A stretch of 64,000 nt of DNA, taken from NCBI RefSeq assembly GCF_037975245.1, contig NC_092570.1, positions 10,703,001 to 10,767,000 on the forward strand. The letters are read 5' to 3'. The position numbers were made by a program, and so were the translations under genes. Shown here piece after piece: positions 13,283-31,848 of this stretch (position 1 is the stretch's first letter; every line of letters starts with the position of its first letter). This DNA is from Apostichopus japonicus (taxonomy: Eukaryota > Echinodermata > Holothuroidea > Aspidochirotida > Stichopodidae). The notes under the pieces were generated by a model. That model saw nothing but the letters and a program-made list of their open reading frames with translations, did not search any database and was not told where the DNA came from.

Positions 13283-14324
13283 TTAAGATCCATTTAAAAT
13301 CTTCTTTTGCTCATCAAATATTTCCTTCACACGTTCATAGATCATAACATCTTCATGGAGACATTTCTGTATTTCTTCATTTTGCATTAAACTCTCCTTC
13401 GCCTCTCTCTGTATTCTATCCCGATCGCCTTTCTTATCTTGAATGTCGTCACCGTCCATGTAGAGGCCTGAGTTTGAATGCTCTGACTGACACATTTCAA
13501 AAGGCTCTCCAAATATATTTTCAAATAGTTTCAACGAAGTCTCAAACTCCTCCGTTAACCCAATGACAGCGAATATTTTATCGATATTGCTAAGGACGTA
13601 CTGAAGAGTGGCTTCTCTCTCTTTCTCTATAGTTTTAAAGTGATCAATGGTAACCACGTGGTCCTTACAGAGCCATGGTGAATTAGTCTCATTGGACTCT
13701 CTTTCACATGGTAAATGCATCGTCATCTGGCGGAAGAATAAACTACACAGCGATAGAGTAAATTCCTCTAAGGTGTTATCACATGGCGGCCATCCTTCAC
13801 CTCCGCCTTTACAAAAGTAGTAATGCGAGACAATTCTCTCGTATGGTTCTCTCATCACTGTAAAATATGAGCACGGCCGATCTTCAACAAAGTCACATAT
13901 TCCCATTACTGCTTCTCCCATAAAGTATTCACTTGGAGCGGTGAAGTCATTCAGACGGCTTACTTTAACATCATGAACTGTATCAACCGCCAGGACAGTC
14001 GGTGTCGGTTTATTTAATTCGGTAGTAATCGATAGAAGACAATTTTTCATGGAAGTACCAGCGCTTTTGGGATTATGTAGAAACGCTAAAATAGACTCTC
14101 TATACGGTGAAGAAGAATTCGGATACAAGTATGCGTTCGGGAGGAATTTATGCAATAATGGCATTGGTATATCCATCGATGGTGGCTCTAGTTCAGGTGC
14201 TTCACTCTTGTCATCGTATGTGTTCCTTTGAAAGTCTTGAACCAGGGTGGGTTCTATCTTCTCAAAGTGTGATCTCAAGAGTTCGGGTTCTTCCTTAATT
14301 TCGCTTTGCTTGTTTAAGGGTACT
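13283..14324 (-). CDS. Golgi-type carbohydrate sulfotransferase, copy 1, catalytic (terminal) exon
   Basis: This exon encodes the whole lumenal catalytic domain. The PAPS 5'-phosphosulfate loop is HNPKSAGTS (about residues 117-125 of the 380-aa two-exon model), and the 3'-phosphate-binding segment is MREPYERIVSHY (about 191-202). These two motifs define the membrane-bound sulfotransferase superfamily, closest in style to Sulfotransfer_2; the acceptor sugar cannot be told from sequence. A sequon (NET) lies near residue 245. The exon begins after the acceptor TCTCTTCAG (minus strand) at 14324 in phase 2, which fits the donor at 17862. The frame is open with a non-ATG codon at the apparent start (14278), so the true start must be in the upstream exon. 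It ends ...ILNGS-TAA. A near-identical paralogous exon is at 28613-29603: eight differences in ~330 residues, all N-terminal to residue ~165. Confidence 0.88.
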
Positions 14325-15213
14325 CTGAAGAGATATGAAAATGAATATAATTTATGAATTGGTATACTCGTTGTAAATAGTTCTGTTAAATGAACGGGTT
14401 GCGTGTGATTCTACGGTAGCCTACTGTCAAGTTTGTATCAACATGTTTCGTCGGTTTTGGACGCGTATACTTTGCCCTGCTGTGAAAACACGAAACAAAT
14501 ATGCGATATAAACCATTCTTCGTAATTTTAATCATTCGTTCATTACTTATAAAACATTCCGTCACTTGTACTGTAGTACAATCCACGTCGATACTAAGAC
14601 TTGTCCCGATAGCATTCGTCTCATAGCATAATATTAAATACTCAACCGTTTTTATATTTTTACTGTGCCTTGTTCTACCACGCACGCTATCGTTTAATCC
14701 AACCCCTGCTTCTGGATGGTGGGAGGGATCTATCCTAAGACAGAATTTTATTTTCGAGATAATATTAGTTGAGTTGTTTCGTATCGCGAGTGGTCGACCG
14801 GCCCCAATGTGCTGTGACTATCAGTGAGTTACCAAGAACCATTGTGGTCGAAACCACTCACATTACGAAGGGATGTTAAAAGAAAAATCTTAGTTGATAG
14901 TCTTGTACTTATAAACCCCAAAACTTTCCGGTTATTTTTCAACACGCTTATATTACTTTGGACATACACATATTACTTTGGACATGTTCATATTAGTTTC
15001 GACATGTCTATATAAATTTGGGCATGCTCATATTAACTTGGACATGCTTATATTATTTTGCATATTTAGCAACATATGGCGTAACTGAAACGCCAAAATG
15101 TTCACTACAAAATTGAAGTTAGCAGTTAGGTTCGACCATCTTGTATTACTTTTCGACATCTTTTAATAATTTGGACATGCGCATATTATCATTCGACAAC
15201 CTTACATTAGTTT

Positions 15214-15372
15214 TATATATATATATATATATATATATATATATATATATATATATATATATATATATATATATATATATATATATATATATATATATAT
15301 ATATATATATATATATATATATATATATATATATATATATATATATATATATATATATATATATATATATAT
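15214..15372. repeat. (TA)n microsatellite, ~158 bp
   Basis: Uninterrupted alternating TA. It lies directly 5' of the Tx1/L1-like ORF1 fragment. The 'YIYIYI' frame across it is an artefact. Confidence 0.97.
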
Positions 15373-15391
15373 CGTAATTACGTAGCGATTT

Positions 15392-16375
15392 TTAAAAACA
15401 GCATTGGAATGTTGGAAAGTGACATGGACAGGGCTATCGAAGCCTTATCTAAACGAGTGGAGGAGTTAGAGAAAGATTACTCAGATCGCCTTTCAGGCTT
15501 TTCTAAAGCTTTGGAGAAGGCCAATGCTGCCATTAATGAAAATGCTGATCGCAGAAATAAACTTTGAGCGGCATTCTAGACGGAACAATTTCAGAATCGT
15601 GGGACTCGTTCGAGTTGATAACCAAATGGCCAAGAGATGCGCATTGAGAGATGCCATCGGGGTGGACGGGGTGTCGGAGATAAACCGCCGCATATTTTAG
15701 CGAGATGTCTGTCCTTTCAGGATAAGATTACTATCATGAAGTCGTAAAGAAATCACATGAAGGAAGGTCACGACTTTTTTCTTGTCGAAGATCTAAGGAA
15801 AAAGCTGGATTTTAGTGGAGAAAAAGCCCCGATAGGTTAAGGTAAAGGAAGTGAGTTAAATTACGATTCGTGGCGGGGAAGTGGTGATGCTCGTGGGAAA
15901 CAGTACCCTTTTAAATAAAAACAACGTCGTGGGAATTCACCAGTGAACTTTACAGATGTTTTGAACCCATTCAAATTAATTTCTGGGCCATATATCTTTG
16001 TAATTTCCTGACAAGTTACAATGTATACTAAATTGATCCCTTCATTCTATATGGAATGTTTGATTGTTAAGTCTGGTTACTCCTCATTCCCTCTTTCTCG
16101 AGTGCAAACAAAGCACTCTATTGGGTTGTCTTGTTGCTGTGTTGCTGTTTGTCTTTGAGAGTTTGTCTGTGTTTTGTTTTAGTTTGTTTTCTGTTTTCTG
16201 TTTTGTATGTTCTTAAGTCTTTAAAATGCATGATATCATCTCTGTAATTTTAACCTTTAATGCCCGTGGATTAAAAGACACTAAGAATAGACGTAAGGTG
16301 TTTACTTGGCTACATAACCAACATTTCTCTATTTCTTTAATTCAAGAAACGCATTGCATTGACGCTTTGGACTAA
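15392..16375 (+). mobile_element. Tx1/L1-like retrotransposon 5' fragment (ORF1 plus start of ORF2)
   Basis: 15408-15570 encodes a charged, coiled-coil-like ORF1 segment ([19 protein letters not shown]). It is followed, with frame breaks, by an RRM-like part (RRNNFRIVGL across a frame change near 15575) and a C-terminal part (PPHILARCLSFQDKITIMK), as in L1-group ORF1 proteins. After ~300 bp of spacer, 16227-16375 opens an apurinic endonuclease domain with FNARGLKDTKNRRKVFTWL and SLIQETHC, then a stop. Multiple stops and shifts make it inactive. The rest of ORF2 is missing here; a matching C-terminal piece in the same orientation lies at 17265-17400, beyond the GATATC repeat. Confidence 0.75.
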
Positions 16376-29920: not shown

Positions 29921-29981
29921 ACATCACATAGAATGGTGGTCAATATTCACAAAGAGTGCTCTTTGCCAAGGCAGAGCTAGA

Positions 29982-30071
29982 ATATCACATAATATACTTA
30001 ACTAAACTATCAAACTCCGAGTAGCAGTATGATGATAGTTTAATAGTTTAGTTAAGTATATTATGTGATAT
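29982..30071. repeat. Perfect 29-bp inverted repeat (hairpin)
   Basis: 29982-30010 is exactly complementary to 30043-30071, with a 32-nt loop. The arm reads ATATCACATAATATACTTAA and continues. The right arm merges into the (TA)n tract at 30070. Confidence 0.95.
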
Positions 30072-31645
30072 ATATATATATATATATATATATATATATA
30101 TATATATATCCATCCATCCATCCATCCATCCATCCATCTAACGATCTAACTATCTATCTATCTATCTATCTATCTATCTATCTATCTATCTATCTATCTA
30201 TCTATCTATCTATCTATCTATCTATCTATCTATCTATCTATCTATCTATCTATCTATCTATCTATCTATCTATCTATCTATCTATCTATCTATCTATCTA
30301 TCTATCTATCTATCTATCTATCTATCTATCTATCTATCTATCTATCTATCTATCTATCTATCTATCTATCTATCTATCTATCTATCTATCTATCTATCTA
30401 TCTATCTATCTATCTATCTATCTATCTATCTATCTATCTATCTATCTATCTATCTATCTATCTATCTATCTATCTATCTATCTATCTATCTATCTATCTA
30501 TCTATCTATCTATCTATCTATCTATCTATCTATCTATCTATCTATCTATCTATCTATCTATCTATCTATCTATCTATCTATCTATCTATCTATCTATCTA
30601 TCTATCTATCTATCTATCTATCTATCTATCTATCTATCTATCTATCTATCTATCTATCTATCTATCTATCTATCTATCTATCTATCTATCTATCTATCTA
30701 TCTATCTATCTATCTATCTATCTATCTATCTATCTATCTATCTATCTATCTATCTATCTATCTATCTATCTATCTATCTATCTATCTATCTATCTATCTA
30801 TCTATCTATCTATCTATCTATCTATCTATCTATCTATCTATCTATCTATCTATCTATCTATCTATCTATCTATCTATCTATCTATCTATCTATCTATCTA
30901 TCTATCTATCTATCTATCTATCTATCTATCTATCTATCTATCTATCTATCTATCTATCTATCTATCTATCTATCTATCTATCTATCTATCTATCTATCTA
31001 TCTATCTATCTATCTATCTATCTATCTATCTATCTATCTATCTATCTATCTATCTATCTATCTATCTATCTATCTATCTATCTATCTATCTATCTATCTA
31101 TCTATCTATCTATCTATCTATCTATCTATCTATCTATCTATCTATCTATCTATCTATCTATCTATCTATCTATCTATCTATCTATCTATCTATCTATCTA
31201 TCTATCTATCTATCTATCTATCTATCTATCTATCTATCTATCTATCTATCTATCTATCTATCTATCTATCTATCTATCTATCTATCTATCTATCTATCTA
31301 TCTATCTATCTATCTATCTATCTATCTATCTATCTATCTATCTATCTATCTATCTATCTATCTATCTATCTATCTATCTATCTATCTATCTATCTATCTA
31401 TCTATCTATCTATCTATCTATCTATCTATCTATCTATCTATCTATCTATCTATCTATCTATCTATCTATCTATCTATCTATCTATCTATCTATCTATCTA
31501 TCTATCTATCTATCTATCTATCTATCTATCTATCTATCTATCTATCTATCTATCTATCTATCTATCTATCTATCTATCTATCTATCTATCTATCTATCTA
31601 TCTATCTATCTATCTATCTATCTATCTATCTATCTATCTATCTAT
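30068..31645. repeat. Giant compound microsatellite: (TA)n-(ATCC)n-(TATC)n
   Basis: (TA)n spans 30068-30108 and (ATCC)n 30109-30138. After a short transition, a perfect TATC tetranucleotide runs over 30151-31645 (~1,495 bp, ~374 repeats) without a visible interruption. The 528-aa 'YLSI' frame across it is an artefact. It lies within the intron of sulfotransferase copy 2. Confidence 0.97.
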
Positions 31646-31687
31646 TACTGAACTTCATATATTACTGTATATACATGTGAAACTTAC

Positions 31688-31848
31688 TTTATGAACTCCG
31701 TTGACTGTGTGACCATTAAAGCCATAAAAATTAGGACTGCAGCTGTAACGAAAACATATTTTATTAAATTAAATCCTCTCCTTGGATGTCCACAGGTAAA
31801 CTTCATCTCTGACAATATGTATCCCAGTTTAAAATCGGTCGTACCCAT
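31688..31848 (-). CDS. Sulfotransferase copy 2, first coding exon (signal anchor)
   Basis: The minus strand starts at ATG 31848-31846 and encodes 53 codons plus two bases, ending at a consensus donor (ATAAA/GTAAGT). The N-terminal part is a 30-residue cytosolic tail (MGTTDFKLGYILSEMKFTCG, then HPRRGFNLIK), followed by the helix YVFVTAAVLIFMALMV (31-46). Copy 1's first exon shows a shorter tail, the shared RGF motif before the helix, and the same donor phase. A second in-frame ATG at residue 15 could give a tail closer to copy 1's length. Phase joins correctly to the catalytic exon at 29603. Confidence 0.75.

What the first reader, a model, noticed from the sequence alone, without database searches (positions are those of the whole stretch)
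13283..31848. Two-exon sulfotransferase gene pair reconstructed from phase and topology
Each catalytic exon (14324-13283 and 29603-28613) opens at a pyrimidine-rich acceptor in phase 2. About 2.1-3.5 kb upstream lies a short exon with ATG, basic tail, transmembrane helix and a GTAAGT donor, also leaving two bases (17963-17863 and 31848-31688). The same architecture twice makes chance unlikely. The products (about 380 and 383 aa) have type II Golgi topology with intact PAPS-binding motifs.
Basis: partly seen in the sequence, partly recalled or inferred. Interest (0 to 1): 0.7.

Follow-up and report, generated by a model that had tools for sequence, protein, structure and literature searches.

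The report
Tandem two-exon Golgi sulfotransferase gene pair
Two neighbouring genes, probably from an animal, seem to encode sulfate-transferring enzymes whose enzyme parts stayed nearly identical while their membrane-anchor parts drifted apart, an ordinary outcome of gene duplication followed by DNA copying between the duplicates.

Summary
Both splice junctions keep the frame (380 and 383 aa). Both catalytic exons pass Pfam's cut-off for Sulfotransfer_2 (PF03567), narrowly, and carry the PAPS-loop lysine and the PxxRxxS motif. A scan of both strands for "ATG + membrane helix + phase-2 GTAAGT donor" finds two hits in 64 kb, the two proposed first exons (60 shuffles: mean 0.017). The first exons are distant homologues and share a 40-bp element in the 5' flank.

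The "same architecture twice" argument needs correction. The catalytic exons are near-copies: 12 of 991 bases differ, and 503 consecutive bases are identical, ending 2 nt past the stop codon. The 3' UTRs differ at 15 of 150 sites and the first exons at 24 of 75; the introns show no match outside TA repeats. Best explanation: an older tandem duplication whose catalytic exon was later homogenised by gene conversion.

The nearest solved enzyme, at the edge of significance, is heparan sulfate 2-O-sulfotransferase; its catalytic histidine is missing from the aligned stretch, so the substrate is open. Transcripts, organism and cell location could not be tested; structure prediction failed.

The parts
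17863..17963 (-). gene A exon 1: Met-Gly start, short tail, membrane helix, phase-2 GTAAGT donor (possible longer start at 18002)
14325..17862 (-). gene A intron, phase 2, 3538 nt, with a TA microsatellite and a degenerate AGATATCTC... repeat
13283..14324 (-). gene A exon 2: stem and sulfotransferase domain (PF03567, 23.1 bits), stop codon
13127..13282 (-). gene A 3' flank (probably 3' UTR) homologous to that of gene B
18071..18110 (-). 40-bp element in the 5' flank of gene A, shared with gene B
31688..31848 (-). gene B exon 1: Met-Gly start, tail, membrane helix, phase-2 GTAAGT donor
29604..31687 (-). gene B intron, phase 2, 2084 nt, mostly GATA microsatellite
28613..29603 (-). gene B exon 2: stem and sulfotransferase domain (PF03567, 22.5 bits), stop codon
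28533..28612 (-). gene B 3' flank, first block homologous to gene A
27767..27842 (-). gene B 3' flank, second block homologous to gene A, beyond 690 extra bases
31930..31969 (-). 40-bp element in the 5' flank of gene B, shared with gene A
13281..13783 (-). 503-base stretch identical in gene B (28611-29113): the most recent conversion tract

Best explanation
Two tandem paralogous genes on the minus strand, probably of an animal, each encode a type II membrane sulfotransferase of the Sulfotransfer_2 kind. Exon 1 gives the start codon, cytoplasmic tail and membrane anchor; after a phase-2 intron a single exon gives the stem and the PAPS-dependent catalytic domain, which would pass sulfate from PAPS to a glycan in the Golgi lumen. 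The pair arose by an older duplication (diverged first exons and 5' flanks, unrelated introns). The catalytic exon, and less recently the 3' UTR, were later homogenised by gene conversion, most recently over the 3' half of the exon; copying stopped where homology ended, at the intron and just past the stop codon. Shown: open frames, splice signals, family motifs, uneven divergence. Inferred: splicing in vivo, Golgi location, enzyme activity and substrate, and conversion as the copying mechanism.
For: Both joined frames open and in phase. PF03567 above cut-off for both. NPKSAGTS at 118 (A) and 121 (B), PYERIVS at 194 and 197, fitting the PAPS-loop lysine and PxxRxxS consensus given for PF03567 in PMC11625862 (passages seen). 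First exons are the only two window hits to anchor + phase-2 GTAAGT; 60 shuffles mean 0.017. Exon 1 proteins align at score 54, reached by 1 of 5000 shuffles; the 40-bp 5' element scores 40, reached by 0 of 1000 shuffles. Differences: exon 2 12/991, 3' UTR 15/150, exon 1 24/75 nt; dS 1.24 in exon 1 against 0.018 in exon 2; Fisher p 1.3e-7 (UTR against exon 2) and 3e-21 (exon 1 against exon 2). The 503-base identical run: 0 of 20000 permutations of 27 differences over 1141 sites.
Against: No transcript, protein or animal relative could be examined. The family score only just passes, over profile positions 11-102 of 252. On the coding part alone, 52 of 20000 permutations reach the longest run. 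Exon 1 dS rests on 17 sites and 25 codons. Against synonymous sites only, the UTR contrast is weaker (p 0.0014). Changes between the catalytic exons are mostly amino-acid changes (about 8.5 against 3.5 synonymous; dN/dS about 0.6; five amino-acid and no silent changes in the first 25 codons), so the pair itself gives little sign of constraint. The structure model failed (mean pLDDT 34).
Confidence: 0.8

Rival explanations
1. Exon capture instead of conversion: a DNA segment with exon 2 and 3' UTR was copied recently beside an older gene's first exon, which supplied anchor and donor.
For: DNA homology begins within 8 bases of exon 2B's acceptor and covers exon 2 and 3' flank, while the introns show no match outside TA repeats.
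Against: One copying event predicts even divergence, but the 3' UTR differs at 15/150 sites and the exon at 12/991, none in its last 501 bases. At least one later conversion is still needed.
Confidence: 0.15
2. One complex locus with alternative first exons: both first exons, or an inner acceptor, are used with either catalytic exon.
For: All acceptors share the phase; exon 1B to exon 2A is open (400 aa), and exon 2A used from 14273 is open (363 aa).
Against: Each catalytic exon has its own upstream first exon and 5' flank element; compatible phase alone is weak evidence.
Confidence: 0.1
3. The catalytic exons are expressed alone, starting at internal ATGs, and the first exons are unrelated or dead.
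For: Internal ATGs exist in the open frames, e.g. Met50 of P0001.
Against: The scan gives first exons only where the models need them; they resemble each other; both acceptors are at the predicted place.
Confidence: 0.05
4. Assembly artefact: two haplotypes or a collapsed repeat laid in tandem.
For: Very high identity of the two catalytic exons.
Against: First exons, introns and UTRs differ far more than the exon.
Confidence: 0.03

Closest known systems
Sulfotransfer_2 family (Pfam PF03567), carbohydrate sulfotransferases
   Same: Passes the curated cut-off (23.1 and 22.5 against 22 bits); PAPS-loop lysine and PxxRxxS present; N-terminal anchor in the joined models.
   Different: Match covers profile positions 11-102 of 252 only and passes narrowly; substrate unknown.
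Heparan sulfate 2-O-sulfotransferase (HS2ST; PDB 3F5F, 4NDZ)
   Same: Best solved match: E 0.008 with the exon, 0.004 with a 106-aa piece; VIRDPIERLVSYYYF aligns with VMREPYERIVSHYYF.
   Different: Weak similarity. The putative catalytic base His142 (PMC6094399, passages seen) falls on Gly136 of P0001, next to Glu137. I counted this along the alignment, assuming that the chain ends at HS2ST residue 356. The aligned stretch APSEYFMGEAVMGICDF holds no His.
PHROG 3347, annotated galactose-3-O-sulfotransferase
   Same: Weak match over residues 80-189, E 0.0028.
   Different: No match among 50,697 phage records at E 0.1.
Mosaic gene conversion between paralogues, e.g. GOT1p1/GOT1p2 of the copepod Tigriopus (PMC3728101, abstract and outline seen)
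   Same: Islands of high divergence beside homogenised stretches in one gene pair.
   Different: Seen there in several populations; here judged from one sequence only.

Membership tests
Sulfotransfer_2 (PF03567) | Score above Pfam's gathering cut-off (22 bits) | tested here: met
   23.1 bits (exon 2A) and 22.5 bits (exon 2B); narrow
Sulfotransfer_2 (PF03567) | Conserved lysine in the PAPS-binding loop | tested here: met
   NPKSAGTS at 118 (A) and 121 (B); feature from PMC11625862 passages
Sulfotransfer_2 (PF03567) | PxxRxxS 3'-phosphate-binding motif | tested here: met
   PYERIVS at 194 (A) and 197 (B); consensus from PMC11625862 passages
Sulfotransfer_2 (PF03567) | Central beta-sheet with strand-loop-helix PAPS fold | tested here: inconclusive
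   AlphaFold2 on 2 sequences: mean pLDDT 34.0; no fold search run on it
Heparan sulfate 2-O-sulfotransferase | Catalytic base His142 | tested here: not met
   No His in the aligned stretch; the alignment is itself weak (E 0.004-0.009), so a shifted base is not excluded
Heparan sulfate 2-O-sulfotransferase | 2-O-sulfation of uronic acid in heparan sulfate | not testable with these tools
   needs an enzyme assay
Type II Golgi membrane enzyme | Uncleaved N-terminal signal anchor, lumenal catalytic domain, Golgi location | not testable with these tools
   anchor-like helices present (KD means 2.48 and 2.43); cleavage and location not shown
Gene-conversion pair | Tract of excess identity bounded by diverged homologous flanks | tested here: met
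   503 identical bases, 0 of 20000 permutations (coding part alone 52 of 20000); UTR 15/150 and exon 1 24/75 different

The most novel reading that the evidence does not exclude
The pair is a modular system: conversion keeps one catalytic domain the same in both genes while each anchor exon and 5' flank evolves freely, so one enzyme activity is delivered to different Golgi zones or tissues. The enzyme would be a divergent Sulfotransfer_2 branch with a glutamate (Glu137 of P0001) in place of the HS2ST histidine as catalytic base.
Probability: 0.12. Interest if true: 0.4.

Novelty: new member of a known kind. Interest (0 to 1): 0.2.

Why it matters
It gives two usable gene models in unannotated DNA. 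It is also a clear example of exon-limited homogenisation: the catalytic exon alone would date the duplication far too young, while the first exon keeps the older date. If the differing anchors matter, the pair would show how an enzyme can stay constant while its delivery evolves.

Tried and rejected
Double occurrence as independent proof: rejected, because the catalytic exons are near-identical copies; replaced by the scan for first exons.

Third candidate first exon at 1842-1763 (GTRAG donor): translated, leucine-rich; not among the matches listed for either first exon. Not pursued.

Further exons inside the two introns: 0 candidates under narrow criteria (pyrimidine tract of at least 65%, GTRAG donor, 45-600 nt, phase 2 to phase 2); other exon kinds were not sought. 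Further copies of the catalytic exon in the window: tblastn at E 10 lists none beyond the two.

Intron homology: blastn between the introns with the repeat filter on gives 0 matches; with it off, 19 rows, of which I saw the first part, the ones I could place lying in the TA repeats. The 400- and 250-base 3' ends score 21, reached by 106 of 500 shuffles. The last 41 nt score 18, reached by 13 of 500, through the shared TCTCTTCAG. A first look at the 5' intron ends scored 18 without a control.

Relatives: viral contigs, 5 pattern matches, 0 confirmed; genome contigs, 104 pattern matches, 0 confirmed; phages, no match at E 0.1; NCBIfam, one chance-level hit to an unrelated model, E 0.04. These are viral, bacterial and archaeal collections, so the absences say little.

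Structure: AlphaFold2 on the two-row alignment gave mean pLDDT 34; no fold search was run.

Literature: 8 searches. '2-O-sulfotransferase' with 'gene conversion' gave 0 papers. I saw passages of PMC12314368, PMC5597905, PMC6094399, PMC11625862 and PMC9526060, and abstract and outline of PMC3728101; others as listings only. None of what I saw describes this pair, but the organism is unknown, so this does not show that it is unpublished.
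Full report
WHAT WAS CHECKED. The window is 37.8% G+C without ambiguous bases. Long microsatellites, a non-LTR-type reverse transcriptase and intron-split genes suggest an animal; the organism was not identified. Every coordinate of the finding was read and the exons were joined in a script. Gene A (17963-17863 to 14324-13283) and gene B (31848-31688 to 29603-28613) run open to a stop codon, 380 and 383 residues, both introns in phase 2 with GT...AG borders.

ARE THE FIRST EXONS REAL? Such an architecture could be picked out by eye in any 64 kb, so I scanned both strands. 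With donor GTAAGT in phase 2, a helix with a 19-residue hydropathy mean of at least 2.0 and 60-360 nt, there are two hits: the two proposed exons (the scan takes A from its upstream ATG at 18002). Sixty dinucleotide shuffles gave mean 0.017, maximum 1. For the same donor, phases 0 and 1 gave none. With GTRAG the counts are 0, 1 and 3 for phases 0, 1 and 2 (shuffle means 0.23, 0.25, 0.18); with GTRNG phase 2 has 3 against a mean of 0.73 and a maximum of 3. The two exons resemble each other: 48% identity over 31 columns, 5 of them gaps, score 54, reached by 1 of 5000 shuffles. In a lenient tblastn of the window each is the other's best non-self match, but only by a factor of about ten (E 0.002 and 0.006, next 0.023 and 0.044). 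A 40-bp element in the 5' flanks scores 40 against a best of 35 in 1000 shuffles. This support does not depend on the catalytic exons.

WHAT THE CATALYTIC EXONS ARE. Both pass the Sulfotransfer_2 cut-off (23.1 and 22.5 against 22 bits) over profile positions 11-102 of 252. The best solved match is heparan sulfate 2-O-sulfotransferase, E 0.008 for the exon and 0.004 for a 106-aa piece. The PAPS-loop lysine and PxxRxxS, given for PF03567 in PMC11625862 (passages seen), are in both. The putative HS2ST base His142 (PMC6094399, passages seen) has no counterpart: by counting along the alignment, with a chain offset that I assumed, it falls on Gly136 next to Glu137 of P0001 (letters checked). PMC11625862 says that the base is histidine, or glutamate in some enzymes. 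So these are sulfotransferases by profile and motif; they are not shown to be HS2ST, and the substrate is open.

ONE EVENT OR TWO? The shared 991 coding bases differ at 12 places, all in the first 490. From 13783 to 13281 the genes are identical for 503 bases, ending two bases past the stop codon; the 3' UTR then differs at 15 of 150 ungapped sites, with indels besides. The first exons differ at 24 of 75 codon-aligned bases. Synonymous distance is 1.24 in exon 1 (17 sites) and 0.018 in exon 2 (200 sites). Filtered blastn finds no match between the introns, and their 3' ends align no better than shuffles, apart from the last bases of the acceptors. Permuting the 27 differences over 1141 sites gave no 503-base run in 20000 tries; on the coding part alone 52 of 20000 did. 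Fisher tests separate exon 2 from the UTR (p 1.3e-7; 0.0014 against synonymous sites, with counts rounded) and from exon 1 (p 3e-21). One recent duplication predicts even divergence, so I read an old duplication with later gene conversion. Against an easy reading of function: between the two catalytic exons amino-acid changes outnumber silent ones (about 8.5 to 3.5), and the first 25 codons have five and none, so the pair gives little direct sign of constraint, though both frames are intact.

A DETAIL OF HISTORY. Exon 2B is 51 nt shorter at its 5' end. In gene A CTCTTGAG lies inside the exon just before the shared part; gene B has CTCTTCAG there as acceptor. A 51-nt deletion between the like strings CTCTTCAG (A's acceptor) and CTCTTGAG would explain this and keep the frame. 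Direction cannot be told without an outgroup.

HOW IT MOST LIKELY WORKS (inferred). Exon 1 anchors the protein in the membrane with a short cytoplasmic tail. Stem and catalytic domain face the lumen, in keeping with three N-glycosylation sequons per protein, one at the very end, and 10 (A) or 11 (B) cysteines. PAPS binds through the loop lysine and the PxxRxxS helix, and sulfate passes to a sugar.

LIMITS. No animal collection was at hand. The own-genome search did not complete in seven tries. The structure prediction failed. Confidence of 0.8 covers the two gene models and conversion together; the gene models alone I would put higher.

Noticed in passing
window 30071-31645: GATA microsatellite of about 394 copies, 99% matches, filling most of the intron of gene B.
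   Followed up: no
window 50588-52781: Satellite array of a 56-bp unit, about 39 copies, 94% matches.
   Followed up: no
window 59039-61426, minus strand: Pieces of a non-LTR-type retrotransposon: reverse transcriptase (PF00078, 1.5e-24) and an endonuclease match below its cut-off.
   Followed up: partly
window 40845-40919 and 41338-41412: Two tRNA-Cys-like genes with anticodon ACA (ARAGORN), both 48.5 bits in Rfam, within a duplicated block with TA repeats.
   Followed up: no
window 16547-17028: Degenerate 21-bp repeat (AGATATCTCTAATTCAATTCT), about 23 copies at 72% matches, in the intron of gene A.
   Followed up: no
window 3208-3757 and 33115-33628; also 10106-10201, 25455-25551: Dispersed element: a 550-bp pair 84% alike, with a part of about 95 bp also at two other places, in both orientations, 80-92% alike; possibly a SINE or other transposon.
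   Followed up: no
window 27843-28532, minus strand: 690 bases found only in the 3' flank of gene B, ending in an A-rich run on the gene's strand: probably a transposon insertion.
   Followed up: partly
window 14266-14281: Inner acceptor-like CTCTTGAG in exon 2A at the place of exon 2B's acceptor; its use would keep the frame (363 aa).
   Followed up: partly
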